DNA from: Glandiceps talaboti
Taxonomy: Eukaryota > Hemichordata > Enteropneusta > Spengelidae
Assembly: GCF_964340395.1 (NCBI RefSeq)
Contig: NC_135549.1
Location: forward strand, 23,949,842 to 24,013,841
DNA: 64,000 nucleotides
Direction of reading: 5' to 3'
This document shows positions 1,913-42,177 of this stretch, in pieces. Positions within the stretch are counted from its first letter, which is position 1. Every line of letters begins with the position of its first letter. Below the pieces are notes generated by a model. The model saw nothing but the letters and a program-made list of their open reading frames with translations, had not been told where the DNA came from and searched no databases. The position numbers and the translations under genes were made by a program.

Positions 1913-1971
1913 TACTTACTTACTTACACACATTGGTTACCCCGGCCACAGAGTCAATCATCGGGTCTAAG

Positions 1972-2366
1972 CACAGGGAACAGGACAAATAATCAGTTTT
2001 GTTATGGCGATTTTCCGGATTTCTAATATTATTTTCTGTATATTTCAAATAAAGTTTCCTCTCACTGTTTTTTCTTACTATTTCCTATGTGATATCAATG
2101 TCTTATCGGAGCTTATCAGCTTTGCATTAATTAGTAGCTTACTAATTCAAGAACAAACTCACTAGTTATTTGCCCAATTAGCGCATTAAGCCGTGAGTGT
2201 AAACATTCCCTGATCCGACTGATAAGCTCCGATAAGATATTGATATCACATAGGAAATAGTAAGAAAAAACAGTGAGAGGAAACTTTATTTGAAATATAC
2301 AGAAAATAATATTAGAAATCCGGAAAATCGCCATAACAAAACTGATTATTTGTCCTGTTCCCTGTG
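1972..2366. mobile_element. Foldback / MITE-like element, 148-bp inverted arms
   Basis: The left arm (1972-2119) and right arm (2219-2366) are reverse complements along 148 bases, with one mismatch that I can see (TCAATGTC against TCAATATC). A 99-bp non-repeated spacer separates them. Outer ends read CACAGGGAACAGG. It contains no transposase. A diverged single-arm relative lies at about 22966-23060, so this is a family and not a unique palindrome. No clear target-site duplication was identified. The near-perfect arms suggest recent insertion or arm homogenisation. Confidence 0.85.
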
Positions 2367-3646: not shown

Positions 3647-3702
3647 ATGGATGTACATGAACTGTTTTTGAGTTGTAAGATTGGTGATTTATCCCGTGTT
3701 GA
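3647..3702 (+). CDS. ABTB1: ABTB1 coding exon 1
   Basis: Encodes residues 1-18 (MDVHELFLSCKIGDLSRV), matching the vertebrate N-terminus in pattern. The preceding in-frame TAG at 3623 excludes a longer start unless a further 5' exon is spliced in. Donor is GA|gtaagt. Confidence 0.92.
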
Positions 3703-6700
3703 GTAAGTATCATGTGTAAAGCAAACACCACGCCCCTAGATGTAGTACTTTAGCGGCCGCGGTTTCATACATATACATACACATACATACGTACGGTGCG
3801 TGCGTATGCACCGTACACACACATGATATGACACACCGTGTTGTCTATGCATAATAATATATTAATGAGTGTTTACATACATTTTTTGGTTGACTATTTT
3901 TTTTTATTTTTTTATTTTTTATTTTTTGCAAACATTTAAGAAGTCATGAAGCATACGCAAACCAGACTAGCTAACAGGAAAACGGTTCTTTAGGGCTGAA
4001 TGTGTAATTTGAACTTAAAGAAAAAGAAATCTGAACTATTTTGTACCTTTTGTAAGATGTACCTTTTGACTTTCTGTAGTGCCCACTTATGACTGATTCT
4101 GAATTGAAGTACAAAAATGTAATTAGATAGATCCTAACTATTTTGCAAGGTCTGAAGTAAAAGTTGTCTCCAAGAATTGATATTTGACTCCCACTTCATC
4201 TCTGGTAGGTATCTGGTGGAGAAAAAAGAAGTTGAATTAAACATCAGAGATGCATGGGACAGTACTCCACTGTAAGTTTTGAATGATATTATTACTATCC
4301 AAATTGATATATTTAAACAATAATGTACGCCCTCCCAGCCCATAATGGACGAAAGCAAACTTTGAACGACATAATGGGCGAGGCGACAGCCGAGCCCATT
4401 ATGGAGTACAAAGTTTGCTTGAGTCCATTATGGACTGGGAGGGCGTACATTATTGTTATTATTTTATAGTTTTGCCAATTCCAGTGAATTTGTAGACCTA
4501 GAAACGCAAAACAACGTATAATATACACAGCGCTGAACATCGTCTGCCATGTTCGGCCCGGAAGCTGAATACTAATCATAGCGATTCACGTACGTACATG
4601 TACACACACATATACACTTCAATGAACTGCTGTGAACACAAATTTGTTTCATGAATGCGTTGTATTTTACAGTAGAAATGACAATCATAAGTCTCAACAT
4701 AAATTTCGAAAAAATACCTAGCCGTATGAAGAAACAGAACAAATCTCATCTCTTACGGACATAAGCTTGTATTGTTATGCTCGTTCCGGGGCCGCGATGC
4801 CCAATAACGGAGTACATTATCAGTAATAATGTACAGCGATGACGTCACAAAATTCACTGGAATTGGTAATGCTATTATATAATTGTGTATAATGGGGTTT
4901 GGATGGTAATCTCTCCTGTGTGAGGAGACCCGAGACAGCTCCCCAAATCGAAGCCACAAGAAGCTCTGATATTTTGTAGATGCCATTAAGTTCACATTTA
5001 TATAGCCTAGAATCCAGTTGTGTGGGATTTATTCCTTACCATGCCTTGCATTTTGCCAGCCATTTACTTATGTTCAGCTAGAAAGAAAGTGTAAATTCTT
5101 ATTGGGTTTAAAAGTTCTTCCCTGCTGTGTGAGGTGATGTCAGTAGCATCACCACGTGATTAGAACCAACTTGAAGGGTTGAGCTGTACGATGTAAATAT
5201 AATTATCATATTCAATTGGGGTTGTGCATCACTGCAGGAAATTGTAATCTCATTTTACATGTAAGTTTCAATAAACGGCTAGAGTTGAAATGCCAGGCTA
5301 TATCTAAAACTCCCCCACATTTATATGTTGGGATACTTATCATAATTTATGTCAATTTTTGCCTAGGTGATTTTCATCAGGCTAGATTGTTAACATTTGA
5401 TAGCATACCATGTGATTGTCAAAAAAATGTAAATTTGGATGAGGTATTGCTTTTTCTTGTATGTACAACGTACATGTAGTAGAGCTTGTAGACACTAAGA
5501 TTCACTTGTCTGATGAGAAGCCCAGATATTCTGAACTGAAAGAATGGCAATATTGCATGTGTACATGTATACAAATGTATATTGCAGTATTAAAATTACA
5601 TGTAATATATTCATATTTGAACTAGTGAAGTGTATGTAGTATTTTGTCTTGATGTTCACTGTTGATACCAGTAATGCACATCTAGACTGTCTGAAAGCCT
5701 GGCTTACATTGGAATTGTTAACATATGTTTTACCATTTGCTCTATCTGTGTATTGTATGCCCTCAACGGTAATCTAAAATATTTCTACAATTTGCAATGC
5801 CCACTGGCAGCAAAAGTTGCCAGGCTGTGAGAGAGTCTACCTCTACACATGTAACTTTTTACTTCATCTTTACATTGTAGTTGTACACAAATGTTGGTTA
5901 TTCAATGTCAACACAGATGCGGTGGTATATCAAGTGTGACATTATAAACTGCACATTATTTAAATTGTCTGTTTTTGGTCACCAGGTATTATGCCTGCCT
6001 GTGTGGTCATGAAGAGCTGGTAGAGTTTCTACTGAGTTGTGGTAAGACTAAGAGAAGTCCTTATATTAATTGTCACAGGATGATTTCATACATCTATTTG
6101 ACTTAGCAATTTCTGATGCATATTCGATAATAATAGTGTATACTGAGCGTTTGTTGTCATCAATCTAGATCTTACATAAAACATGAATGAATGAAATTTA
6201 TTTCACCAGATAAACAAAAATAAGCTACATTTTCAAAGAACATACATATGATACAAATATACAAAAGGGATACAAATGAAATACACAACTGTTAAAGGTA
6301 CAATTCTATTAAAGGATCACTTCATCCGTGTTATTGATGATAATTGTGCATCTTACTTTTCAGGTGCCAAGTGTGAACTGAACACTTTTGATGGTGAACG
6401 GTGTTTGTATGGAGCTCTCAATGACAAGATTCGTAATATTCTCAAGAATTACAAAGCCATCACAGCCAAGTATATGAGAAGAGATACGTTTCAGGAGTTC
6501 CTTAGAAAGTAAGACTTTTGCCAGTAATATTTGGTCAATATTTTCTTTTAATTTATCTTTCCACAATCATTTTTCATCTGTACAGAATTTAACTTTAACA
6601 AGACATGGTCCAACGTGAGACACTGTTTTCATGAAAAAAAAGTCTGTTAAAACTGCACTGCCTGTTCCTGGAATATTATTTTTTGATTAAACAACCAACA

Positions 6701-9700
6701 ATGTATTCACTGAAATTTGTTTATGTTCAATGCTAATAGACTTTGTACGTGGGGGGTGTTTGTATCCATAAGCAGTACAACAAAAGGTTGAAATAGTGAT
6801 GATGGGGGGGAGGTTTCCACGTACGGCTGAGTTTACATGATGATGTTTTCAAATACTGAAAAATCAATAGTACTGTTGTCGTTTTAATGCCTTCTCACAA
6901 GTTTACACGATTGGCTGACAAGTGTTTTTGACTGTCTGCACTGAGACATCAAAGATGGAACAATTTGAAAATGATGCTGTTGCATACATGTATGCATAAA
7001 CATAATAATGTATGTTAGTACATCATCAATGGTGGTTATTCATGAGGTCAAATTTGTGTATTTTCAAAATGTTGAATTTTAAGTAGTTTATACGGTGTTG
7101 TTTTTTAATCTTTCTGTTTTCGTCTGTTTACTCAGACTCTGTTTTCAAATGAAAACGAATCGTATTCAAAACTTTCAACAGTGTTTTCAAATTGGAGATT
7201 TTAATGTACCTTTTTGTTATCTTCCTGTAGATGATGTGCAAACACAACAAAACACTGCTGAATTTGAAAACAGCATCATGTAAATGAGGCCTAAATCTCT
7301 GTATAGTGTAGACAACTTTACACTTGTAAAGTTGTAATAATAAATAAATAAATAACTATGTTCAAAGTATTAAGAGTGTCTATAAAGCATTGGGAAAATT
7401 TGACATTGACCACTGTTCAGTGTTATTTCAATTCCTCAAATATACATGTATCTTCAAAATACATCAATGTTGGCCCCAGATTTAGATTCCAAATGCGTAG
7501 CTTTCAATACAAAAACCCTTCTTTTCCTCCTTCTTAAAAAAAACGAATTTTGGAAAATTTCTTTCAAGTTTTGTTAGATAATCACAATTTGGAATTCCCA
7601 ACACTGCATTCCTTTCCATTGAAAACCTGTTATTTCATCTTTTACAGACTACTTGACCGTGGCAGGTATGAAGATATTTCTTTTGAGGTTCATGGGGAAA
7701 TATTTACTGCTCATCGCTGCATCTTGTCTGTCAGGTCGAACTACTTCAAAGAAATGTTACAAAACAAATGGAATAAGAAAACTACTGTTACTCTCAAACA
7801 CCAACTGGTATGTTGTCTCCAATTGTTTCTTTTAAATCCTTTCAAAGAAGTAGTGCTAAGTTTGTGACGTGTAAAGATATATACTGAAGACTTTTGCAAG
7901 AGACTCTAGTCCATTGGTAGTATTGCAGTTACAGATTGAAATAAAACAGGTATTGATGAAACCTTGTAATTTAAGAAGTACAAATATCCTGGTTACATGC
8001 TTATTAGTGATACATTGTGTATGATTGCTTTGGCAAGATCACTACCAAACCCCCCCCCCCAAAAAAAAAAATAAAATAAAATAAAAATAAAAATAAAAAA
8101 TAAAATAAAATAAAATTATTTTTGTGGCATATTGAAATGAGTCTATCAATTGATGTTAATATGATTAAACTAACAGAATGATTTGCAGTCTTCAGTTCAG
8201 GGAGAACAATACACAGCAGTTTAGTTGTAGAGATTTCCAGCACACATTTTTGCAAACTTCATGTATTTTTATACACTACATATTACTAGGGTGATTGCAC
8301 CCACAGAACCAAGGCATGGCTATCACCTATTTATGTAACCTAGTAATAGAGGTATATATTGTGTCTATCTTAGTTTATACTGGTACCTCTGTTGTGATAA
8401 AATGGCATCACTTTTACTGGTAAATTCTTAGTAACTACAGGGCCAGGGGTACTAATTGTAAGCACCTTGAGCTCTCTGGAGAAAAAGTGCATTATAAAAT
8501 ACGCAGTATTATTATTATTAGATAGTAGATGCAGACTTATTTTAAGTATGAGTCAATAGTGATGTGTCTAAATACTTGTAATTGCATCGATGTCAACTTT
8601 TTTTATCAGCCAAAGTAATGTGGTGTCTAAGTACACATGTATGAACATTTTCCTTGTTGTTAATATTGTTGACAGTGAAATATTTGTTTACCATAATTGT
8701 AACTTTGCTTCATTGCAGGTCAGACCAAAGGCATTTGGTGCCATTCTTCAGTATCTGTACACAGGTAAGTACTGGTTCAATTAGTGGTAATATTATGGAA
8801 GTAGTACAGAGGAGACGAAACAACAATAATATCTCATGCCTTTTACACGTAGGTACATATATATAAGGAGGTCTTATGTTCGTACAAAACCAGATTATAA
8901 TAACAAAATTCGACTTCAGTTGATAGCATAAAAGCAGGAAGACAGAACTGTCCTTTTGTATGAATAAAAAATCATGTCACATATAAAGACAGGACAATGT
9001 GTAATTCAGGTCTTTCTGGATTATTTTGGTAAATTGATGACAAAATTACAGTTTTAAATTTCATTCCCAATCCTGAACTCTGAATTTTCATAAATATATA
9101 ACAATCATTCACTGCTGCCCTACATGTATATCAAGTACATTTCAATTTTATACCGTTCAGATGTAGCTTTGTATGCTCCACCAACTCTAATTAATGTTTT
9201 GGGCACAGATGAACTAAGGTTGAAGAGTGCTATGTGTTTGTTTGTTTGTTTTGTTTGTTTGTTGTTGTTGTTTTTTTTTTTGGTTTGTTGTTGTTTTTTG
9301 TTGTTGTTTTTTTTTTGGGGGGGGGGGTTCGTGTATGTGACTTAAAGTTACAAGATATGCCTGACTGTACATGTACCCATTGTCTCAGTATTTGTTACGG
9401 TGTCTCGTATGGAATCAAAATGGATTTGATAGATTTCACAGTTGTGCTACAATGCCATTGGTAAGTCTATTTTTCTATCCCCACTATGACAGACTCAGTT
9501 GAAGTCCATGTAGATAATGTTGAAGATGTGATGAGACTGGCCAAACAGTGTCAACTCACTGATTTAATGATGAGGATTGAAGATTCATTGAAGAAAACTG
9601 ACTCATTTGGTAAGGAATCGTCAGGTTGAATTACTGAAGTTGAATTCTGTAAGAATTGTCTTCATTTAGAAGCAAAGTGGTCATAATAGAAGGGTATTAT

Positions 9701-12700
9701 TATTTTCACATATCTGTGGTACATTGTCTCAGTTTTATGGCTATAAGAACAAATCGACATAGAAAACAGTGAGAATTATCATATAATACTTCTACTAATA
9801 CTTTTTAATATACCTGTAGTATTAAATGTATACAAGTAAAAATGTATACAAGTATGTGTATTTGTTGATGCCACAAGAAGCAGGTATATACTACAATGTG
9901 AAGGAGTTGGCTTTCCAATAAAGAACAATGAGATTTTTAACAAATTTTCTGATCTCATTTCCTAAAAACATGCAAGGATATCAAGTCTGTTGCCGATCTG
10001 ATACTTTATGCTCTCATTGTTACCATTTATATATTTGACATATTTTAACATGCACAAACCATTATTGTACGAGTTCAAATCAAAATGCAATTTATTTATT
10101 CATTTTATGACCATTCTATAACACAGGTAAAGTACTTTTATGTCACTCTGTCGTTCTAGAAATATGAGTCAAACAGTGAATGTTACATTATAATTATTTC
10201 ACCCAATTGTTCATGAAATTAAACTTGGGCAGGTATAATTCCCCAAATATTTATTTGCATTCAGCCAGCAAAAATACTCGACAGAAATATTTTTTCAGTA
10301 CTTGTTTGAGTTCCAGTGACAAAGCCTCATATCTGACTTGTATTTCCTTGGTCTAACTATAAAAAAAAGTATTGGTAAATTTGTTTTGTTAGTTGTATAT
10401 TCCATATCAACTTACAGAAAGCACTGGGCCTAATATCTGTTTTCATTTGTGTCACTATCAATATGGCATATCAACTAAATTTTGATTTTTAGCCCAAATT
10501 GTTCAAATGAAAGTGATCAGATCAGTGAAATGCCATATTTCATGTGATCAATTTCCTTTTCAGTGTAACTTCTCAGGTATGTCACTGTGTCATATATTCA
10601 CTGTCAAAATTCCATTGTCACTCCCATTTCAAACTAAAAGGAATACCTTCTATATTAAAGAATAGCATGGATTTCAATTTCACCCATTTTGTACAACACC
10701 TTTGGCACTATTCTGTACCTCTTATATCTTATCATAATACAATGTATCTTGTAGTGAGTGCTAAACCTGGTACACGTGTGACAGTGATCAGTATAGAGTC
10801 CCCAGAAGAAAGCACAGCGTTACATAATGATTTGGGACAACTAGCTGAAAGGGCTATTCCAAATCTGATCAATAATTGGGTAAGTCGCAAATCTGAAATC
10901 ACAGCCGATGTCTGTATATTGTGTAAATAATCAGGAATCAGGTGCTTGTTATCCAGAAATTTCACAATTATGGGATGTTGCTCAGGTATGGATATGACAT
11001 CACATGTAAAAAGAAGTTGAAAATAAGAGAGAAGCAGTGAAAGAAACAATGAAAATTATTGTTCCAACGAGTAACATCTGCAGGGGACTTAAATAACCAT
11101 GTTGCAATTTTGACACTGCCAATTTGTGAACAGTGTCTATTAATAGTACAGTGTCAAGATATGTCAAGAAATAAGAAATTATTCTAACCCTCTGTTGTTT
11201 TTGCAGAGATTTTTGTAACCATGGTAACATAATTAATAGAAGGTGGGGGAGTGATAGTGAACCCTTAAAACTTGCATATATTGTAATACCTTGTTATAAT
11301 AATGTTGATGTTAAGTAATATTAAAATGCCACGGGAACTCTGATTTTACCAACTTATCAACTAAAACACAGTGATGGAAAGGTTGTCACAACTTTAATGC
11401 ACATTCTGTGATAACAGGTTAACTGTGGTGAGTTACCATTCTGTGTTGAAGATGATGAGGAGCCGTTGTTTGCTGACATATGTTTTTCTGTGGAAGGTCA
11501 CCATTTCTACTGTCACAAGGTATGTAGTGGTAAGATAAATACACACTATTGTCACGACTAATGAGGTAAACCCTGTAACACAACCCCACAAGTTACATCA
11601 CTGCAAGTAAACAACACGTTCAATATTAATACATTGTATCTCGTTGTGAAAAATCAGATTTTCCCCAGTTTTCTCTGGCTGCAGTACAGTGCAAGGCCAA
11701 GAGCTTGCTTCCTATTTGACTAATTGTCTGAAGGAAGTAAGCTCTTAGGAGTCATGAATATTCAGTGTGCATCTAATGAATATTTATATTATGTATGCTA
11801 ATACCCACAATGCAGTGGTGTATCACTAAAAAAAACAATAGAGGTGAAAAAGTTTAAATTTGGTGTTTCTTGGAAACTGAGCAAAAATTACGTGATGTGA
11901 AATCATGAAATGAGTCTCCCAAAGCCAAACTTGAGGAAAATACCTTGATTTCCTGGAGTGCCATTCACCTTTAACTTTTCCAGTTGCCTCACATACCTTG
12001 GATAATGAGATATTAACATGTAATGCAAGCTTGGTTTCCTAGTAAAATGCTGTCTATCCAGTGCTGTAAAGTAATATTTGACTTGTATAATGTGCATTGT
12101 TTGCCAGTGCAAGGATAAAACCCAAGTGACACTTGCATTTTCTTTCTCAACCAGATTTTCTTCTGTTGCCGTAGTGATTATTTCAGTGCGTTGTTGGCCG
12201 ATCATTTTTCTGAGATGGGGACAGACTCACAAGAGAATATACCAGTGGTGTTTCTAAAAGACATCTCAGCACATGTCTTTAGCAAAGTTGTTCAGTATCT
12301 GTATACAGAGAAACCACAGGTAAAGACCTTCTATAACACAAGTAAAAATGCATGTAATATGATAAATGGAAAAGATGTGAGTTAGGGATATGAAGAGGAA
12401 AGTGTAACCTGTAATTTGTCTTGCAATTGTTTGACAAAAATTGCCTTCAGTCTTGTACTTCATGCAAAAGACTATTTTTTGTCATCAAACACCTTTCACC
12501 ACTGTGTGTATGTATGTATGTATGTATGTATGTATGTATGTATGTATGTTATGTATGTATGCTATGTATGTATGTATGTTATGTATGTATGTATGTATGT
12601 ATGTATGTATGTACGTATGTATGTACGTACATATGTATGTACATACATGCGCGTGTGTGTACGTACGTACGTTTCTGTTGTTTATTTCCCATAGTTTTCT

Positions 12701-14588
12701 CTTCAAGTCGCCTATTTGTTGTGTATGGCATATCACTGACTTAGTACTTTATTCTGTACTTGTAGATTTCTCCTCAAGTGGCCTATGATGTGTTGTGCAT
12801 TGCAGACCACTGACCACTGACTAAGTACTTTATTCTGTATCCTAAGTTTTCTCCCCAAGTAGTGTGTGACATGCTGTGTATGACAGATAATTGGCCTAAT
12901 ACTTTATTCTCTATCAGTAGATTTCTTATCAAGTGGCATATGATGTGCTGTGTGTAGCAGACCACTGACTTAGTACTTCACTTTCTATTTGTAGATTTCT
13001 CCTTAAGTGGCCTATGATGTGCTATGTGTGGCAGACCACTGACTTAGTACTTTATTGTCTATTAGTAGATTTCAAGTGGCCTATGATGTGCTGTGCATTG
13101 CAGACCACTGACTTAGTACTTTACTTTCTATTTGTAGATTTCTCCTCAAGTGGCCTATGATGTGCTGTGCATTGCAGACCGCTACCTATTACCAGGCCTG
13201 AAAAGAATAAGTGCTAACGTAATAGCACAATACCTTGATGAGTATAATGTGGTGTCAGTTCTGAAAGCTTCACGAATGTTTGAATTACCTCGGTTAGAAG
13301 ACCAGTGTGCTGAATTCATGGCAAAGATACTTGACAAGGTACAGTGTGTGTCTTTTATTTATAAGCACTCCTTTAAGTTAATCTTCTTATATCCACACTT
13401 TTTGTTAGAACTTTAACTGAACTAAGATTTCACAATAAGTCATGCCAGTGTGCTTTGTTAAAGGAACCTTCAGTAATTACAGGGAGGAGGTTAAGTAGAA
13501 ATGATGCCCGGTCTGTCCTGTCAAATCTGACCCTCTTCCAATCCATCATGCTAAAAATTTGCCATCCCCCAATTTCGTTCCTCTTACACTTGATCCTCTT
13601 CGGTTAACATATTTTTAAAAACATGGGTTAAAATGCTGTCAGGCATGGACAAGGTACAAGCCCCAGAATCAGTGGTAAGAGCTTGATCCCACCACTGCCA
13701 CCAAAGAGAGTTTTAAAGGAATTGGTCTATTTCTCACTTCTACCACCACCGGGAATTTGATGAATGTACTGTACATTTATTAATCAATACCTATGTTTGG
13801 ATCTAATTGGTTGAGCTGAAGGTCAGCACTCCCAAAGACTTGATGGACATGCACCGTGGCACACTCTCTACATTGTCAGGACATTCAGTCAACATCTCCA
13901 CTCCACAAGATTATCCCCAATATCTTACCCAACTGTTCCTATTTTACTCCTTTGAGACGCACTCCTCCCCTAATATCACAACTAACAATCAATTCACTAC
14001 ATGGTTGTAATAATTACATCATCAAGCCATTTGAAGCTTATATTTTAATACAGATTTGATTTCAATCAAGTGTAACTAATACTAACCATAGTTAGTATGC
14101 TTCATTAAGTAGAATACTGAGAGTAACTCTTGAAAATGCAGCAAAAATTATGCCCTAAAATGTATAAACTCTATAATGCTGACTGTGTACTCTACATATA
14201 GAAGGAAATACTAAACTTTCGAAGAACTCTACCAAAGCAAAGGAAATTGATTTGATTTAATGTAATACCCAATACAAAACATTGCATATGAAATACGATA
14301 TTTCTTCTTTTTTTTTGTGATAATACTAAATTGATTGAATTATAAAACATTACTTTATTATTGTCATGACTATTCTATTAGGTCGTTCACACAGAGGAAT
14401 TTGCTGACTTGATCAGAGAAGATGCCAGTAGTGTGAAAGAACGAGAAGAAACCGATTCCATCATGATCGTTGATGACATCCGCTACCACATCACAAACAA
14501 CGTACAGACATACAGCGCCATGGAAGAAGCTAATGAGAAATTAAATCTGTTAGACGATCTGTTGATTCAGTTGGATGTAGAATGTTAG
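3647..14588 (+). CDS. ABTB1: Ankyrin repeat and BTB/POZ domain-containing protein 1 (12-exon gene model)
   Basis: Coding exons: 3647-3702, 4209-4271, 5986-6041, 6364-6508, 7648-7807, 8719-8764, 9493-9609, 10755-10879, 11418-11519, 12155-12319, 13138-13338, 14382-14588. They total 1443 bases, giving 480 aa, against 478 in human ABTB1. All junctions are GT-AG and phases close. The protein has N-terminal ankyrin-type sequence (about residues 1-75, including NIRDAWDSTPLYYACLCGHEELV), a conserved FDGERCLYGAL linker, BTB domain 1 (about 110-205) and BTB domain 2 (about 275-385), ending in a helical tail rich in Glu and Leu. An in-frame TAG 24 bases upstream fixes the ATG, which has a good context (ACCATGG). 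In mammals this protein (BPOZ) is a cytoplasmic factor reported to link eEF1A1 to CUL3-dependent ubiquitylation and to act downstream of PTEN; that role is inferred here by homology. An AATAAA at 15184 may be its polyadenylation signal. Confidence 0.95.
4209..4271 (+). CDS. ABTB1: ABTB1 coding exon 2
   Basis: Residues 19-39, YLVEKKEVELNIRDAWDSTP, the first ankyrin-like repeat. Acceptor is ctggtag and donor is ct|gtaagt. It was recognised by homology to the human VNVRDKWDSTPLYY region. Confidence 0.93.
4319..4454. mobile_element. Short inverted-repeat element in ABTB1 intron 2
   Basis: Left half begins AATAATGTACGCCCTCCCAG and the right half is its reverse complement, ending in CTGGGAGGGCGTACATTATT. 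Arms are about 60 bases with a few mismatches around a short centre. A related stretch in opposite orientation (AAATTCACTGGAATTGG) occurs at about 4475-4493 and 4852-4872, suggesting a larger nested structure. Confidence 0.7.
5986..6041 (+). CDS. ABTB1: ABTB1 coding exon 3
   Basis: Residues 40-58, LYYACLCGHEELVEFLLSC, almost identical to the vertebrate ankyrin segment. Acceptor is accag, donor is g|gtaaga. Confidence 0.95.
6364..6508 (+). CDS. ABTB1: ABTB1 coding exon 4
   Basis: Residues 59-106, including the family-diagnostic FDGERCLYGALNDKIR motif that links the ankyrin region to the first BTB domain. Acceptor is ttttcag, donor is aa|gtaaga. Confidence 0.96.
7648..7807 (+). CDS. ABTB1: ABTB1 coding exon 5 (BTB domain 1)
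   Basis: Residues 107-160. It holds the core BTB signature: DISFEVHGEIFTAHRCILS followed by RSNYFKEML. The donor follows CAACTG. Confidence 0.96.
8430..8520 (+). mobile_element. SINE/LINE 3'-end-like fragment with (ATT)n tail
   Basis: Reads GCACCTTGAGCTCTCTGGAG, then an AAAGTGCATTATAAAATACG motif, then ATT repeats. This resembles the conserved 3' ends of CR1/L2-like elements and their SINEs in many invertebrates. It is a fragment without coding capacity, in ABTB1 intron 5. Confidence 0.55.
8719..8764 (+). CDS. ABTB1: ABTB1 coding exon 6
   Basis: Small 46-base exon, residues 161-175, VRPKAFGAILQYLYT, the conserved FxxxLxYLYTG part of BTB domain 1. Acceptor ttgcag and donor gtaagt flank it. 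Confidence 0.95.
9438..9465 (+). mobile_element. Relic end of the internally repetitive element family
   Basis: The motif AGTTGTGCTACAATGCCATT matches the 3' terminus of the elements at 16331-17678 and 19438-20507. It lies just 5' of ABTB1 exon 7 in intron 6. Only the end is recognisable. Confidence 0.5.
9493..9609 (+). CDS. ABTB1: ABTB1 coding exon 7
   Basis: Residues 176-214, including NVEDVMRLAKQCQLTDL, the end of BTB domain 1 (LAxxCQL pattern). Acceptor is tgacag and donor is g|gtaagg. Confidence 0.94.
10755..10879 (+). CDS. ABTB1: ABTB1 coding exon 8
   Basis: Residues 215-256, the linker between BTB domains. It starts SAKPGTRVTVISIESP, corresponding to the human SKPGTCVKVLTIEPP segment. 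Acceptor is cttgtag; donor follows TGG. Confidence 0.94.
11418..11519 (+). CDS. ABTB1: ABTB1 coding exon 9 (start of BTB domain 2)
   Basis: Residues 257-290. The end, ADICFSVEGHHFYCHK, is the first strand pair of the second BTB domain. Acceptor is aacag; donor is aag|gtatgt. Confidence 0.94.
12155..12319 (+). CDS. ABTB1: ABTB1 coding exon 10 (BTB domain 2)
   Basis: Residues 291-345, beginning IFFCCRSDYFSALLADHF, equal to the human FFCGRSDYFRALLDDHF segment, then VFSKVVQYLYTEKPQ. Acceptor is accag; donor is cag|gtaaag. Confidence 0.95.
12504..12672. repeat. (TATG)n / (TACG)n microsatellite in ABTB1 intron 10
   Basis: Long TATG array with occasional single-base slips, ending in GTAC/GTGT-rich units. 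The MYVC open frames here are artefacts. It directly precedes the decoy ladder of exon 11. Confidence 0.93.
12695..13137 (+). repeat. Tandem degenerate copies of ABTB1 exon 11 start (pseudo-exon ladder)
   Basis: Six units of about 69-81 bases start at 12695, 12766, 12847, 12921, 12995 and 13069, followed by the real exon at 13138. Each unit has an AG acceptor after a T-rich tract, then a copy of the first 14 or so codons of exon 11, then GACTTAGTACTTTATT-type sequence. Read in the exon phase, most units hit a stop soon: 12766 and 12921 end in CAC TGA, 12995 in TAA after three codons, 13069 in TGA after five. No unit has a strong 5' splice site. Confidence 0.9.
13138..13338 (+). CDS. ABTB1: ABTB1 coding exon 11
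   Basis: Residues 346-412, ISPQVAYDVLCIADRYLLPG onward to LEDQCAEFMAKILDK, all conserved with vertebrates. It is preceded by six degenerate copies of its own 3' splice site and first 14 or so codons (12695-13137). The copy used here is the only one that reads through CGC TAC instead of CAC TGA. Confidence 0.96.
14382..14588 (+). CDS. ABTB1: ABTB1 coding exon 12 (terminal)
   Basis: Residues 413-480 and the TAG stop. It contains EETDSIMIVDDIRYHI and VQTYSAMEEANEKLNLLDDLL, matching the human ETDSIPLVDDIRFHV and VQTYSAIEEA tail. Ends in Glu-Cys, close to the human ending. Confidence 0.95.
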   Translation, partial: VVHTEEFADLIREDASSVKEREETDSIMIVDDIRYHITNNVQTYSAMEEANEKLNLLDDLLIQLDVEC

Positions 14589-16446: not shown

Positions 16447-17678
16447 AAAAGTCAAAAAATTGTTCAAATGAAAATGATCTTACCACCGGTGTGTGATTTG
16501 GATAAAAAAATGAGATTTTTGGTCAAAAAACTTAAACTCGAAAACTACTGGGCAGATCGATCTGAAATTTGTTGGGAACAGTCTTAAGGGTGTTTAGATT
16601 AGAAATTGTTCACGACATGATGATCCCATCAGTGATATGCAAATTAGGGCTAAAATGTGTCTTTTTGATCAAAAATCTTTAATTCCAAAACTACTGAGCT
16701 GATTGAGCTGAAATTTAATGGAGGTGCATCTGGAGGTGTATAGATGAAGAAATTTCAAGCACATTATGATCTCATCAGTGATATGCAAATTAGGTGTAAA
16801 AATGTGAATTTTGGTCAAAAACTTGTATCTCAGAAAGTACTTGGTCAATGAGACTGAAACTTGGTGAGATGTTTCTGGAAGTGTTATTCTGCAGATTTTC
16901 ATCAAAAGATTTTGACATAATTGACCCTAGCAACCATGACCACACCCTTAGCAACAACCAAATGGCAGTATATTTTGATTAAATAACAACATCATCTGAT
17001 AGGCAAGTGAGTAAACATTCACAAATGTATACAAATATCCCTAACAACCATGACCACGCCCATAGTAACAGTCAAACTTTGGTGTATTTCACTAAGATAA
17101 CAACTGGGATTCGTAGACGAGAGAACCAACATTGAAAAAGTGTATGCAAATATGCCTAACAACAAGACCACGCCCATGGCAACAGCCAAATGATCACAGA
17201 TATTGCAAAGATAACAACAGGGATTAATAGACAATTGAATAAACATTGAAGAAGTGAATGTATATGTGCCTAGCAACAAGACCATGCCCATAGTAACAGC
17301 TAAATGATCACATATATTGTGAAGATAACAACAGGGATTAAGACAAATGAATAAACATTCAAAATATGTATGCAAATATACCTAGCAACAAGACCACGCC
17401 CATAGCAACAGCCATATGGTCACGTATATTGCGAAGATAACATCAGGGATTCATAGATAAGTGAACAAACATTCAAAAAAAGTATGCAAATATGTCTAGC
17501 AACATGACCACGCCCATAGCAACAGCCAAATGATCGTGTATATTGCAAAGATAACAACAGGGTTGGATAGGCAACTGGATAATCATTCAGCAAATGAACA
17601 CCTATACCTAGCATGGATCAGCATGTGGGTAAACATTTTTTTAAACTGTACAGTTGTGCTACAACGCCATTGGCGCTC
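16331..17678 (+). mobile_element. Internally repetitive non-coding element, copy A
   Basis: Starts at AGCATAGCTGAACTG and ends near CAGTTGTGCTACAACGCCAT; the ends share an inverted GCACAACTG-like motif. Order inside: terminal module with GGTTCAGTAGTGCTATAGG, a (TG)n tract (16388-16445), about three 120-150-base units containing CCAAAACTACTGAGC-like and ATATGCAAATTAGG motifs, then six tandem units of about 113 bases (16926-17610) starting CCTAGCAACAAGACCACGCC. No open frame encodes a transposase. Related copies at 19438, 17876 and 49602 show it is a dispersed family. Confidence 0.8.
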
Positions 17679-19437: not shown

Positions 19438-20507
19438 AGCACAACTGAACTGGCAAGGTTTCAGTAGTGCTATAGGCGTGTGTCTGTGTGTCTGTGTGAA
19501 CAACTTAAAAGTCAAAAACTGTTGCACTGATTGCCATGATATTTGGTGGATGTATTATTATCTTAGGTGTCTAGTTGGGACATTGTTCAAATTAAAATGA
19601 TCTTACCACCGCTGTGCGATTTGGGTCAAAAAATGTGATTTTTGGATAAAGAAAACAACAACTCCAAAACTACTTAGCAGATCGGTCTGATATTTGTTTG
19701 GAATGTTCTTACAGGTGTTTAGATTAAAATAATTTCATGCCATGATGATCCCAATAGTGGTATGCTAATTAGGTATGAAAATGTGTCTTTTGGCCAGAAA
19801 TCTTTAATTCCTGAACTACTGAGCAGATTGGGCTGAAATTTGGTTGAAACATTCTTCAGGGTGTTTATATCAAATTAAGAATTGTTCATGACATGATTTG
19901 TCAATCAATGATACGCAAATTATAGCTAAAATGTGTCTTTTTGTTGAAAAATCCATCATTCCAAAACTACCCAGCAGTTTGGGCTGAAATACTATAATGC
20001 GGGTACATCTGGATATGTGTAGATAAAGCTGTATTTACAATGTGATAATCCTATTAGCCATATGCAAATTAGGTCTAACAATGTCAATTTTGTTCAAAAA
20101 CTTATATCTTGAAACTGCATGGTGAATCGGGTTGAAAATTGGTGGGGATGTTTCTGGAGGTGTAATTCTGCAGTTATTAATTGTTGAAAACATTATGACA
20201 CATGTGGCCCTAGCAACCATAACCACGCCCTTAGCAACAGTGAAATGACAATGCATATTACAAAGATAACAACAGGGATGGGTAGGTAAATGAATACAAA
20301 TTCAAAAAAATGTATGCAAATATGCCTAGCAACAAGTCCATGCCCATAGCAACAGCTAAATGTTGGTTTATATTGCAAAGATGAAAAGCGAGAAGGGCAG
20401 GCAAGTTATTGAAGATTCCAAAAATGTATGCAAATATATGCCTAGCAACAAGGCCATGCCCATACCATCAACTATATACAGTTGTGCTTCAATGTCCTTG
20501 GCGCTAT
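19438..20507 (+). mobile_element. Internally repetitive non-coding element, copy B
   Basis: Starts AGCACAACTGAACTG, continues through TTTCAGTAGTGCTATAGGCG and repeated AAAACTACTGAGCAGATTGG-type units, then two to three CCTAGCAACAAG units, and ends GTTGTGCTTCAATGTCCTTG. It has fewer 113-base units than copy A, so unit number varies between copies. Confidence 0.8.
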
Positions 20508-21310: not shown

Positions 21311-22840
21311 TTATGCCGTGTTATAAGCACTTATCAAAGCTGCTAAGCGAATGTTCGTTGTGCCACTCTTTACAGTTATAGAGTGGATACCCGAAGAAAC
21401 ACCACTTCTGACATCAAACAGACGCAGAAGTCCAAACTTGAAACTTGTAGACAGGGTAACTTGATGAGTTTCATCGTCGTCCATCCAAACATTTACGGTA
21501 TCACATTCTGAACAAGTGAACGTACCGATCAATATTTTCGCTAGCTTCTGTTGATAAGGTTTTATGTTAATTTCAAAGGTGATCGTGCTGTTGGCTCTGG
21601 AAGGCTGCCAATGCCATTTATTGTCAACACGGTTGTTTGCCGATTGTCCAGGAAGCGGTCGTTGCCATCCATTATTCTTCACGGGAATAAGTGGGTGTTT
21701 GTTGCCAGTTTCTGCCAAAATTGTTGACCAACACTGCGTGTCCGTTACACTTGTTTCATTGTATAGGGGAGGGGGCAGGTTTATTGTGTTCTTCATTTTG
21801 TTTTGAATTTTTGTGGTGTTGGATATTTGACCTGCAGATCTTTCAAGGGTATCAACCACTCTTGCGAGGATACTATTGAATATTTTGGCTAGCAGATGCG
21901 CGACTATCGTATGGTATTTGATACTTGGGTGATGTCCATCCAAGGGGCTGACTAAGTCGTCAATTACACCACTATCTTTAAGTTGACAGTAAGCATTCTC
22001 CATATTCAGAGATGGAATATTATAGTATTCACTCAGTGGTTTACTGCAAATATCTCCATTGCCAAGACACAATCTCTGTTTGATCCCACACATAAAATTG
22101 ACGTAAATTATTTGGGGCCAATCCTGTACGTTCACTATTTTCCTGGTTAATTCTTCCTGTGGTGAACAGCCATATTTGAAAACAAAGTCATTGACCGCAA
22201 ACTCCCAAAGAACGACATCAAGTTCAGTCAAGTTCAGATAATTGTCTATACAGTATGTGAAAAACATACTTCCTGTAGCGCCAACCGCGCCATTCCGAAG
22301 AACTACGGGAGTCTTTAAAACATAACTGAGCATTACTCGAAGTTGTTCTGCGTAAAGATTTTTGGTGCCAACATTTGCAGCGGCAGAAATTGAACCACCG
22401 CTTACACCCATCACCAACTCACGTTTCGTCAGGATTACGTCCTGGATGGCACGCTCTAGAGTGGGAACTGCAAAGTTTTTATCGGGAAGAGTTTGTTTTA
22501 GTATTGTTTCATTAATTCCCAATTCAATAAACTGTATCTTAAGCTCGCCATCAAGGTAATTAATCCTCCCCCGTATATCCATCAAGTCGCGAATCAATTT
22601 AGTCTTGTCGTTGCCATTATCATTGCCATCCTCTCCCCTTGTTGTAGCCGCCTTCTCACGAGTTTCTAGAACAAACGTACACCGTTGTTCTGTAGAAGTA
22701 ACGTCGCTTTTAATCTCCTGATAGGAATTGGGCGATGTTGCTCTCTGCCTTAGGGAAGTCGACTTGAATATGAATACGAGAATCCAGCACAGTACTGTTG
22801 CTGAAACCAATGATACAAACGCACTGTTGATATTCTTCAT
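21311..22840 (-). CDS. SGNH/GDSL-type hydrolase-like protein, intronless, membrane-anchored
   Basis: A single uninterrupted frame of 509 aa. Residues 7-25 form a hydrophobic segment after a short basic start, read as a type II membrane anchor or uncleaved signal. A low-complexity charged stretch (about 60-85) leads to the catalytic-like domain (about 140-335). In it are VMGVSGGSIS (candidate nucleophile Ser150), NGAVGATGS (block II-like Gly), VLWEFAVNDF (block III Asn, residue 218) and DGHHPS (301-306, the Asp-x-x-His of block V). A C-terminal region (about 400-505) with W-, D- and T-rich strands looks like a beta domain. The substrate is unknown; relatives act on acyl or acetyl esters, often on glycans. 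There is no obvious functional link to its neighbours. The lack of introns contrasts with the other three genes. Confidence 0.82.
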   Translation of the reverse strand: MKNINSAFVSLVSATVLCWILVFIFKSTSLRQRATSPNSYQEIKSDVTSTEQRCTFVLETREKAATTRGEDGNDNGNDKTKLIRDLMDIRGRINYLDGELKIQFIELGINETILKQTLPDKNFAVPTLERAIQDVILTKRELVMGVSGGSISAAANVGTKNLYAEQLRVMLSYVLKTPVVLRNGAVGATGSMFFTYCIDNYLNLTELDVVLWEFAVNDFVFKYGCSPQEELTRKIVNVQDWPQIIYVNFMCGIKQRLCLGNGDICSKPLSEYYNIPSLNMENAYCQLKDSGVIDDLVSPLDGHHPSIKYHTIVAHLLAKIFNSILARVVDTLERSAGQISNTTKIQNKMKNTINLPPPLYNETSVTDTQCWSTILAETGNKHPLIPVKNNGWQRPLPGQSANNRVDNKWHWQPSRANSTITFEINIKPYQQKLAKILIGTFTCSECDTVNVWMDDDETHQVTLSTSFKFGLLRLFDVRSGVSSGIHSITVKSGTTNIRLAALISAYNTA

Positions 22841-22965
22841 TTTAATACAGCATAATTTACTGCCGGAATCCTTAGAACGTCTAGACAGACCAGTCCTATA
22901 AAAGATCTAAAGGTTGTGCTCTTATTACAAAGATGGCATACCAAGAGGTTAAATATTTAGAGATC

Positions 22966-33200: not shown

Positions 33201-34311
33201 CTGACCGACATTGATTGTTTTTGGGTCGAGGCAATGTTTTTCACAATTAAAAAGATAAATGAAAATAAAATAAAATCCCGACCTACCTACCATAGTTTCT
33301 GTGGCTGCATGTTTTCGGAAACACACAGTTATTTTTTTTTTTCGCCTAGCTTACAAATACAGTACATTTGTTTAGCCTGTAACCTATAACCTGGTTTATT
33401 AATGTAAAGATGTTTTATCTCCAGGGACGCTGCAAAATTTGACACCAAACACCAACCCATCGTCAATGGACAATTTCATGGACATCTACAGAACATCTGG
33501 AGAGTTCCTCGTGCCATCAGCAATGGAATACGATATTATCATGGCGGGAATTATGTATTTCTTTTATACTAATATTGGAACCAGTAGAAGCATCGAGCAC
33601 AATTATCAGAAATTGGTGAAAAATCGCACTTTTGAATACAGCGTGGGTGGATTCGCGCTTGGAGTTGTAACTTTAGTGGCGTCTGTTGGTATCGCAATCG
33701 GGTATGCAATTAAAGCTCCTAACAACTGGAAGGACAATAGTGGTTATGAAGCCGAATCATTGTATTATGGGTTTCTCACCGTATTGTACACTATGTGTAA
33801 TATCGCCAGTCTGTTCTCACTAATCAAAATCTACAGAAGTGATTGGCTCCCGGATGACTCGGCGAAAGCCGAAAAGCGATTGGAAACCAGTCTATTAGTG
33901 ATTTCGTCAGTAGGCAAGATTGTACACCCCTTGTTTGTAATCATGTCAGCGCTTTCGTACATCCATTGCTCAAAGCACAACGCTCAGATACTCATCATCA
34001 AGGAAATTTGTGGAATCATAGGCGTCTATTTACAAGTTTTCTTCATATACGACACTTTGCATCGCTCTCCACCTCGGAACAAGTCAAATGCCATGATAGT
34101 TCGTCAGTTCGTAATGTTCTTAATTTTTGCAAATTTGACCATGTGGTGGATGTGCTTCTACGAGATCAAGTTCTTGTCAGTCCATCCGATTCAATACTGT
34201 TTCTATGGTGTTAGGACCTGGTCGCTCATCTTACATTTGACTACTCCTTTGGAAATATATTTTAGATTCCATTCTGCAATATTACTATTAGGGATATGGG
34301 AGAGCTTCTGA
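28828..34311 (+). CDS. Otopetrin-family proton channel (5-exon gene model)
   Basis: Coding exons: 28828-28952, 29917-30158, 31024-31336, 31870-32039, 33425-34311; 1737 bases, 578 aa, all GT-AG, phases consistent. Twelve hydrophobic segments at roughly 52-71, 84-102, 154-175, 195-213, 229-247, 317-334, 357-377, 394-418, 439-462, 472-494, 508-528 and 545-574 fit the otopetrin 12-helix fold of two six-helix halves. Family-like motifs include ATNVSGWVRAYVYE (helix 5), EYDIIMAGIMYFFYTNIG (helix 6), RQFVMFLIFANLTMWW (helix 11) and TTPLEIYFRFHSAILLLGIW (helix 12). The family conducts protons across the plasma membrane, serving acid sensing, otoconia formation and, in sea urchin larvae, calcification. 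Which paralogue this is cannot be said. TAA six bases before the ATG fixes the start. AATAAA at 34484 is the likely polyadenylation signal. Confidence 0.92.
29486..29834. repeat. Compound microsatellite in otopetrin intron 1
   Basis: TATG array with a GGAT block at about 29557-29580, a long second TATG block to about 29720, then CTGT/GTGT units and a GCAC array to about 29834. It ends about 80 bases before exon 2. Confidence 0.95.
29917..30158 (+). CDS. Otopetrin coding exon 2 (membrane segments 1-2)
   Basis: Residues 42-122: ELLATTLVVMSVVFVITVAL and WYYLFLYSTSILAMVVMRL. The donor g|gtatgt is the first unit of a (GTAT)n array. Acceptor is ttttcag, after a pyrimidine-rich tract. Confidence 0.88.
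30159..30217 (+). repeat. (GTAT)n array forming the exon 2 splice donor
   Basis: About 14 GTAT units begin exactly at the exon 2/intron 2 boundary, so each unit offers a GTATGT match to the 5' splice consensus at 4-base spacing. Confidence 0.93.
30251..30492. mobile_element. Palindromic MITE-like element in otopetrin intron 2
   Basis: Left arm starts GAAATGCATATGGAACT and the right arm ends in its reverse complement. Arms of about 105 bases match with few differences (for example ACTAATAAATC against ACTTATAAATC) around a short AT-rich centre. TATG arrays flank it on both sides at 30159-30217 and 30493-30620. Confidence 0.85.
30493..30622. repeat. (TATG)n microsatellite with GTGCACG insert
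   Basis: TATG units broken by TGTGCACGTGTGCACGTATG, then TATG again. It directly abuts the palindromic element. Confidence 0.93.
31024..31336 (+). CDS. Otopetrin coding exon 3 (membrane segments 3-4)
   Basis: Residues 123-227, with LLFIVPVGATLFGICVMMLS and ESVVMIIFILAQMIFVS. Acceptor aatcag; donor is ccag|gtatgg. Confidence 0.9.
31870..32039 (+). CDS. Otopetrin coding exon 4 (membrane segment 5)
   Basis: Residues 227-283. The start GATIIWATNVSGWVRAYVYE corresponds to the conserved HxxATN..VW helix 5 of otopetrins. A charged, variable linker rich in Glu, Asp, Lys and His follows. Acceptor cgacag; donor g|gttagt. Confidence 0.88.
33425..34311 (+). CDS. Otopetrin coding exon 5 (membrane segments 6-12)
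   Basis: One 887-base exon encodes residues 284-578, the whole C-terminal half plus helix 6. It is the best conserved part and gave the family assignment. Acceptor is ctccag; the stop is TGA right after WESF. Confidence 0.93.
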
Positions 34312-41527: not shown

Positions 41528-42177
41528 GCCCTTTAATGCCTGACACCCTATATATAGGGTATATATAATTACAATGAATTACAGAAACCAAGTCATTAAA
41601 GCCTGATACCCTATATATAGGGTATAATTACATAGAGTTACAGAAACCAAGTCATTAAAGCCTGATACCCTATATATAGGGTATAATTACATTGAATTAC
41701 AGAAACCAAGTCATTAAAGCCTGATACCCTATATATAGGGTATAATTACATAGAGTTACAGAAACCAAGTCATTAAAGCCTGATACCCTATATATAGGGT
41801 ATAATTACATAGAGTTACAGAAACCAAGTCATTAAAGCCTGATACCCTATATATAGGGTGGAATTACATAGAGTTACAGAAACCAAGTCATTAAACCCTG
41901 ATACCCTATATATAGGGTATAATTACATAGAGTTACAGAAACCAAGTCATTAAAGCCTGATACCCTATATATAGGGTGGAATTACATAGAGTTACAGAAA
42001 CCAAGTCATTAAATCCTGATACCCTATATATAGGGTGGAATTACATAGAGTTACAGAAACCAAGTCATTAAAGCCTGATACCCTACATGTAGGGTGTAAT
42101 TACATAGAGTTACAGAAACCAAGCCATTAAAACCTGACCCTACAGGGTGTAATTACATAGTTATAGAAACAAAGTCA
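41528..42177. repeat. 59-bp tandem array with a palindrome in each unit
   Basis: Eleven units; after the first, spacing is exactly 59 bases. Each carries the self-complementary core ACCCTATATATAGGGT, at 41545, 41608, 41667, 41726, 41785, 41844, 41903, 41962 and 42021. The unit at 42080 has ACCCTACATGTAGGGT, with both sides changed so the palindrome is kept. The last (42137) is shortened to ACCCTACAGGGT. Units also share AATTACATAGAGTTACAGAA. The array begins about 110 bases beyond the MGLL stop on the minus strand, so it may lie in the MGLL 3' UTR. It has no variable spacers and is not a CRISPR array. Confidence 0.93.

What the first reader, a model, noticed from the sequence alone, without database searches (positions are those of the whole stretch)
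12695..13338. Ladder of six decoy 3' splice sites made of broken copies of ABTB1 exon 11
Six units of about 69-81 bases each repeat the acceptor plus the first 14 or so codons of exon 11. Most introduce an early stop (CAC TGA where the real exon has CGC TAC). None has a good donor, so use of a decoy acceptor would give an extended exon 11 with a premature stop. This could be a neutral tandem duplication, or a splicing switch that tunes ABTB1 level through nonsense-mediated decay.
Basis: partly seen in the sequence, partly recalled or inferred. Interest (0 to 1): 0.75.

Follow-up and report, generated by a model that had tools for sequence, protein, structure and literature searches.

The report
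Tandemly copied intron-exon boundary in ABTB1
Just before the eleventh exon of an animal gene sits a row of six worn copies of that exon's own starting point, a neutral-looking repeat of a kind already described in lancelets, now seen in what is probably an acorn worm.

Summary
The ladder is real. Window 12692-13180 is a 74-base, 6.6-copy tandem array: six imperfect copies of the start of ABTB1 exon 11, then the true exon at 13138. All six decoy readings meet a stop, and none has a good donor. Two paralogs on another contig, open from exon 2 to the stop, each carry a three-unit ladder at the same boundary, so it predates the gene duplications. In the one pair tested it evolves like intron: C4a-C4b ladder identity 171/209 (0.82), rest of the same intron 135/164 (0.82), other introns' alignable blocks 0.78. 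Private decoy changes show no codon bias, and one C4 decoy lost its AG in both copies. Stops are ordinary: 63% of random intronic starts stop within 16 codons. This matches amphioxus 'mirage' minisatellites, reported not to disturb splicing (PMC3087553, PMC3902484; passages). Mitochondrial tRNA-Lys CUU and ATA = Ile point to an ambulacrarian, probably a hemichordate, so the host group appears new. Best reading: neutral boundary minisatellite, with 13138 the normal acceptor. A regulated decay switch is not excluded but unsupported. No RNA data were available.

The parts
3647..14585 (+). ABTB1 gene (ankyrin + BTB), 12 coding exons: 1 at about 3647-3700 (weak match); 2 4209-4271; 3 5986-6041; 4 6364-6508; 5 7648-7807; 6 8719-8764; 7 9493-9609; 8 10755-10879; 9 11418-11519; 10 12155-12319; 11 13138-13338; 12 14382-14585
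   Evidence: tblastn of exon peptides and splice-site curation; exons 2-12 join into one open frame of 461 codons to the stop. The exon 1 and 2 query was a human-like ABTB1 N-terminus recalled from memory.
12320..13137 (+). intron 10, 818 bases, containing the ladder
12503..12641 (+). (TATG)n microsatellite in intron 10, just upstream of the ladder
12695..12765 (+). decoy unit U1: copy of the exon start (30/39) behind a CCATAG acceptor with a non-homologous upstream tail; orthologous in all three paralogs
12766..12846 (+). decoy unit U2: exon part 41/42 identical to the true exon start; best-scoring decoy acceptor (9.7 bits against 2.5 for the true one)
12847..12920 (+). decoy unit U3: old, diverged (30/42), weak AAG acceptor, stop at codon 37
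12921..12994 (+). decoy unit U4: CAGTAG tandem acceptor, stop CAC TGA
12995..13068 (+). decoy unit U5: in-frame TAA at codon 4
13069..13137 (+). decoy unit U6: TAGTAG acceptor, 5-base deletion that shifts the frame, otherwise identical exon part (37/37)
13138..13338 (+). true exon 11 with its acceptor; 201 bases, open, donor AAG|gtacag

Best explanation
It is a 'mirage' minisatellite: a short tandem array that arose by repeated duplication of an intron-exon boundary (branch-point-like CTGAC, polypyrimidine tract, AG and the first about 42 bases of exon 11). The last copy is still joined to the rest of the exon and works as exon 11; the others lie in intron 10 and decay. Shown: the array, the open gene, the same array in two paralogs, turnover of units, and, in the C4a-C4b pair, divergence at the rate of ordinary intron. 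Inferred: the spliceosome normally uses 13138, because only that acceptor gives a normal-length exon next to a real donor. Use of a decoy would give a longer exon with an early stop, that is, some wasted transcript. There is no sign of a selected function.
For: Tandem array. Two more paralogs, open from exon 2 to the stop, with the ladder at the same boundary: C4a 4889519-4889729 minus strand, 3 units; C4b 4917144-4917374 plus strand, 3 units. In the unit tree U1 groups across all three genes (support 1.00, helped by its shared non-homologous tail) and U2 and U3 pair between C4a and C4b (0.85, 0.96), while C1 U2, U5, U6 lie next to the C1 true boundary, i.e. recent expansion or homogenisation. 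C4a-C4b identity: ladder 171/209 = 0.818, same intron before the ladder 135/164 = 0.823, alignable blocks of nine other introns 3972/5100 = 0.779, first 45 bases of true exon 11 45/45. Decoy-private bases by codon position 7, 5, 10 (p = 0.42), with 0 private bases in the 3 true copies. C4 U2 has lost its AG in both paralogs. A stop within 16 codons follows 63% of 19,864 random intronic starts and 844 of 1312 intronic AGs. The genome is rich in such arrays: 39 arrays covering 6169 of 160,000 sampled bases, the two satellite-dominated stretches of 18 dropped. Amphioxus mirages have the same anatomy and were reported to leave splicing intact (passages).
Against: No RNA was examined, so normal use of 13138 is inferred. 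On a small home-made matrix (30 acceptors from 10 exon trios) the C1 decoy U2 outscores the true acceptor (9.7 against 2.5 bits), so sequence alone does not explain why decoys would be skipped. U1's AG is kept in all three paralogs, and both C4 U2 units have another AG about 10 bases downstream at the same place (not among the AGs above the 90th percentile). Raw differences between the true exon start and the 6 of 12 decoys that align without gaps sum to 18, 8, 22 by codon position, as weak coding constraint would give; I read this as silent changes of the true exon counted several times, since private changes show no such lean. The rate test rests on one pair of paralogs.
Confidence: 0.82

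Rival explanations
1. Splicing switch: the decoy acceptors compete with 13138, and their use yields transcripts with early stops that are destroyed by nonsense-mediated decay, so unit number or a factor that picks among sites tunes ABTB1 level.
For: Five of six C1 units keep a YAG acceptor; all but U1 have a CTGAC or CTAAT branch-point-like motif 22-27 bases upstream; scores lie within the range of real acceptors; all six readings stop; the ladder sits in all three paralogs.
Against: The C4a-C4b ladder diverges as fast as the rest of the intron; one decoy acceptor is lost in both C4 copies; stops are expected of any intron; inheritance by gene duplication explains the shared ladder; amphioxus mirages are reported not to disturb splicing.
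Confidence: 0.07
2. Mildly harmful splicing noise: decoys are used at a low unregulated level and the array persists by drift, or serves as raw material for a future intron or exon, as proposed for amphioxus globins.
For: Decoys with intact AG and tracts; the intron-gain model printed for amphioxus mirages (passage); a donor-like ATG|gtatgc of 7.8 bits inside C4a U2.
Against: No transcript seen; no spliced retrocopy found in the genome to read past splicing from.
Confidence: 0.09
3. Assembly artefact or mis-joined haplotypes.
For: Tandem arrays are hard to assemble; unit count may be wrong (general knowledge, not tested).
Against: Units differ from each other (TRF 76% matches), and independent copies with orthologous units stand on another contig.
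Confidence: 0.02

Closest known systems
'Mirage' minisatellites of amphioxus (Adh3; troponin C; globins BflGb6 and BflGb9; PGBD5)
   Same: Tandem duplication of an intron-exon boundary, several units (6 and 3 in the two BflGb6 haplotypes), many units keeping AG or GT signals, homogenised inner units, one authentic copy at the exon (PMC3087553 and PMC3902484, passages seen). BflGb6 duplicates the same kind of boundary: the intron's 3' end plus the exon's 5' part.
   Different: A different gene and, by mitochondrial features, a different phylum; unit of 74 bases against 150-160 (BflGb6) or 10-72 (Adh3); the ladder predates the gene duplications and is found in three paralogs.
Decoy exons that promote intron retention (SF3B1, OGT; PMC8706089 passages)
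   Same: Extra splice sites inside an intron that could compete with the true ones.
   Different: Those are noncoding decoy exons proposed to interact nonproductively with the intron's ends; here there are acceptors without good donors, with no sign of conservation.
Intron changes by variable internal tandem repeats at exon-intron boundaries in human segmental duplications (PMC2812944, passages)
   Same: Minisatellite at an exon-intron boundary altering gene structure.
   Different: There recent, variable repeats, half of them in coding sequence, some proposed to create new introns; here exon length and frame are unchanged.

Membership tests
mirage minisatellite | tandem units that span an intron-exon boundary | tested here: met
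   U2-U6 carry tail and exon start; U1 the exon start only
mirage minisatellite | one authentic copy remains joined to an intact exon and gene | tested here: met
   exons 2-12 open to the stop in all three genes; exon 1 only a weak match
mirage minisatellite | turnover and homogenisation of units within the array | tested here: met
   C1 U2, U5, U6 group with the C1 true copy; the edge unit U1 groups across paralogs instead
mirage minisatellite | unit number unstable between haplotypes, or somatically | not testable with these tools
   only one assembly; between paralogs the number is 6, 3 and 3
mirage minisatellite | regular mRNA splicing undisturbed | not testable with these tools
   no RNA data reachable
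regulated poison or decoy splice element | conservation of the decoy sites above neutral intron | tested here: not met
   (one pair of paralogs): 0.818 against 0.823 and 0.779; AG lost in both C4 U2 units
regulated poison or decoy splice element | premature stop on use | tested here: met
   but not informative: 63-64% of ordinary intronic starts stop within 16 codons
regulated poison or decoy splice element | transcripts using the decoy, rising when decay is blocked | not testable with these tools
   no RNA data reachable

The most novel reading that the evidence does not exclude
The array is a copy-number rheostat: unit number sets the share of unproductive ABTB1 splicing, and it has been kept for that in all three paralogs since before they split.
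Probability: 0.05. Interest if true: 0.7.

Novelty: new member of a known kind. Interest (0 to 1): 0.3.

Why it matters
It suggests that boundary-spanning minisatellites, which in the papers I found are described only from amphioxus under the name 'mirage', also occur in another deuterostome phylum, and that one of them has outlived the duplications that made three paralogs. That makes it a natural experiment on how a spliceosome finds the right acceptor among seven tandem near-copies, and it warns gene predictors and scans against reading such copies as regulatory decoys.

Tried and rejected
Amphioxus as host: considered because the mirage literature is from amphioxus. Rejected on the mitochondrial contig. 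ARAGORN gives tRNA-Lys with anticodon CUU between COX2 and ATP6 (not among the Rfam hits; ARAGORN also lists a minus-strand Lys|Asn UUU candidate inside the ND5 frame, which Rfam does not show). ATA reads as Ile: in COX1, CYTB and COX3, 25 ATA codons stand opposite I 14, V 4, T 2, Y 2, M 1, L 1, N 1 in the best-matching solved structures, while 24 ATG codons stand opposite M 21. AAA is absent from the CYTB, COX3, ND1, ND2, ND4 and COX2 frames and from COX1 after its leader; the ND5 frame has 2 AAA in its last six codons and the COX1 and CYTB leaders have 3 and 1. Gene names are my reading except COX1, CYTB and COX3. PMC3121625 and PMC2697986 (passages) give CUU and ATA = Ile as ambulacrarian traits and AAA as missing in Balanoglossus. 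Against a plain hemichordate pattern: CYTB lies between ATP6 and COX3, and the large rRNA after ND5, unlike the order described for Balanoglossus. No GFP-family match agrees with a non-amphioxus but is weak, since the control genomes were silent too. The species was not identified.

Fossil transcripts: a search with the joined exon 10-11 peptide gave 9 matches: the separate exons of the three paralogs plus three distant long open frames, BTB genes by inference. So no retrocopy was found to show past splicing.

Acceptor matrix: 30 training sites in 10 trios of orthologous exons, leave-trio-out range -7.7 to 11.9 bits. It also gives high scores to AGs inside the exon copies and the true exon, so it is too coarse to rank decoys against the true site and is used only to say that they are not excluded.

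Other mirages in the three genes: BLAST of exons 2-12 against each own gene found none apart from exon 11, only 19-23 base matches (exon 1 not tested). The C4b ladder itself gave no match at E 0.01 in that search, being too worn; it rests on the alignments.

Origin of U1's tail: not homologous to the unit tail. Whether the original first tail was lost or the first duplication began at the AG was not resolved.

Plasmid collection search for the exon 11 peptide: no match, as expected for an animal gene. The original Adh3 mirage paper is not held; I know it only through the citing papers.

Full report
What is there. The window is G000:C1:23949842-24013841 of a 590 Mb eukaryote genome. From about 3647 to 14585 it holds a 12-exon ABTB1 gene; exon 1 is a weak match (E 7e-4) to a recalled query, and exons 2-12 match in order, have a clean donor and acceptor at each internal boundary, and join into one open frame of 461 codons. 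Intron 10 (12320-13137) ends in a tandem array, 12692-13180 by TRF, period 74, 6.6 copies. It consists of six decoy units and, as the seventh copy, the true start of exon 11 at 13138.

Anatomy. A standard unit is: branch-point-like CTGAC (or CTAAT), tract, AG, then about 42 bases of exon 11, then directly the next CTGAC. U1, the outermost unit, has only the exon part (30/39); its upstream 32 bases match the true tail at 10/32 in this gene, 13/32 and 12/32 in the paralogs, no better than shuffles. Read from each decoy acceptor in the frame of exon 10, all six meet a stop: after 14, 15, 36, 15, 3 and 5 codons. The best GT in the C1 ladder scores 4.0 bits against 7.1 or more for the 30 real donors, which are also the training set. 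Stops are cheap here: 63% of 19,864 random starts in the other introns of these genes stop within 16 codons, and 844 of 1312 intronic AGs do.

Paralogs. A DNA search of the own genome found two more places, both on C4. They are two further ABTB1 genes, open from exon 2 to the stop (473 and 466 codons), head to head, with first exons (weak matches, E 0.001 and 0.002) about 1.6 kb apart. Each has a three-unit ladder before exon 11. In the unit tree, U1 of all three genes groups with support 1.00, helped by its shared tail; U2 and U3 of the two C4 genes pair; C1 U2, U5 and U6 sit next to the C1 true copy. So a ladder existed before the genes split, and the C1 array has since grown or been homogenised from its inner end.

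Selection. If decoys were used, their acceptors should be kept better than the intron around them. Between C4a and C4b, the one pair tested, the ladder is 171/209 identical (0.818), the part of the same intron before the ladder 135/164 (0.823), alignable BLAST blocks of nine other introns 3972/5100 (0.779; unalignable parts are not counted and blocks may overlap), and the first 45 bases of the true exon 45/45. The AG of U2 is gone in both C4 genes, though both have another AG about 10 bases on. Bases private to one decoy fall on codon positions 7, 5, 10 (22 in 12 decoys, p = 0.42), while the three true copies have none. Against this: raw differences from the true exon in the 6 of 12 decoys that align without gaps sum to 18, 8, 22 by codon position, which looks mildly coding-like. 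The true exon's own silent changes are counted in each comparison, which I take to be the reason. Also, C1 decoy acceptors are not weak: on a coarse matrix U2 scores 9.7 and the true site 2.5 bits, and the other five decoys 1.4 to 4.4.

Background. Tandem arrays are common in this genome. In 18 sampled stretches of 10 kb, TRF gave 41 arrays of period 20 or more (microsatellites left out) covering 18,196 of 180,000 bases; leaving out the two stretches dominated by one long array each (L018, L019), 39 arrays cover 6,169 of 160,000 (3.9%). In the window itself 9 arrays cover 2,703 bases. With 22 splice boundaries in a 12-exon gene, random placement alone would hit about 0.9 of them (my arithmetic), so one boundary array in this gene needs no special cause; selection against broken boundaries would lower that figure.

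Which animal. The mitochondrial contig C40 carries repeated copies of a 15.4 kb genome (COX1 matches 15,435 apart). ARAGORN gives tRNA-Lys with anticodon CUU. In COX1, CYTB and COX3, 25 ATA codons stand opposite Ile 14 times and Met once in the best-matching solved chains, while 24 ATG codons stand opposite Met 21 times, so ATA reads as Ile. AAA is missing from the CYTB, COX3, ND1, ND2, ND4 and COX2 frames and from COX1 after its leader; the ND5 frame has two at its very end. PMC3121625 and PMC2697986 (passages) give CUU and ATA = Ile as traits of echinoderms and hemichordates, ATA = Met for chordates, and AAA as missing in Balanoglossus. COX1 and COX2 are neighbours. I infer a hemichordate, probably an enteropneust. 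Not fitting neatly: CYTB lies between ATP6 and COX3 and the large rRNA after ND5. The species is not identified. A GFP family search found nothing, weak because the control genomes were silent too.

Known kind. Tandem copies of intron-exon boundaries were named 'mirages' in amphioxus. [quoted passage not shown] PMC3902484 (passages) adds PGBD5 and cites Adh and troponin C. The present ladder has the same anatomy. My paper searches (open-licence library only, listings of titles and abstract starts, two of them cut) showed no report of mirages outside cephalochordates that I recognised; that is not proof that none exists.

Mechanism. Most likely slippage or unequal exchange copies the boundary; only the innermost copy stays joined to the full exon and is under selection; the others become intron. 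Why 13138 should win is inference: it alone gives a 201-base exon beside a real donor, whereas decoys would give exons of 270 to 644 bases. Decoy use, if any, would waste transcript. A regulated switch would need evidence from RNA that could not be had here.

Noticed in passing
G000:C4:4901594 (minus) and 4903191 (plus): Two of the three ABTB1 paralogs stand head to head, first exons (weak matches) about 1.6 kb apart, possibly sharing a promoter region.
   Followed up: partly
L004 and C4a ladder, near G000:C4:4889636: C4a decoy unit U2 holds a donor-like ATG|gtatgc scoring 7.8 bits; with the U1 acceptor it would bound a 93-base pseudo-exon.
   Followed up: no
window 1971-2165 and about 2211-2373: The same peptide (GTGQIISFVMAIFRISNIIFCIFQIKF...) is read on + and then on -, i.e. 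an inverted duplication, perhaps a fold-back element.
   Followed up: no
window 41533-42137: A clean 59-base, 10.2-copy minisatellite, 94% matches, not tied to any exon that I identified.
   Followed up: no
window 16926-17596: A 114-base, 5.9-copy minisatellite downstream of ABTB1; its minus-strand reading CCYGRGHVARHICI resembles CCYGHGLVARHICI at 20193-20405, so related repeats may lie there too.
   Followed up: no
G000:C40: The 51,222-base contig is a head-to-tail concatemer of a 15.4 kb mitochondrial genome with CYTB between ATP6 and COX3 and the large rRNA after ND5, unlike the order described for Balanoglossus.
   Followed up: partly
L018 4514-10000 and L019 3461-10000: Two of the 18 sampled stretches are more than half one long tandem array, probably satellite.
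   Followed up: no
window 33403-34311 and 21311-22906: Neighbouring long open frames: a multi-pass membrane protein that looks otopetrin-like (recalled, not searched) and a 531-residue minus-strand open frame, unidentified.
   Followed up: no
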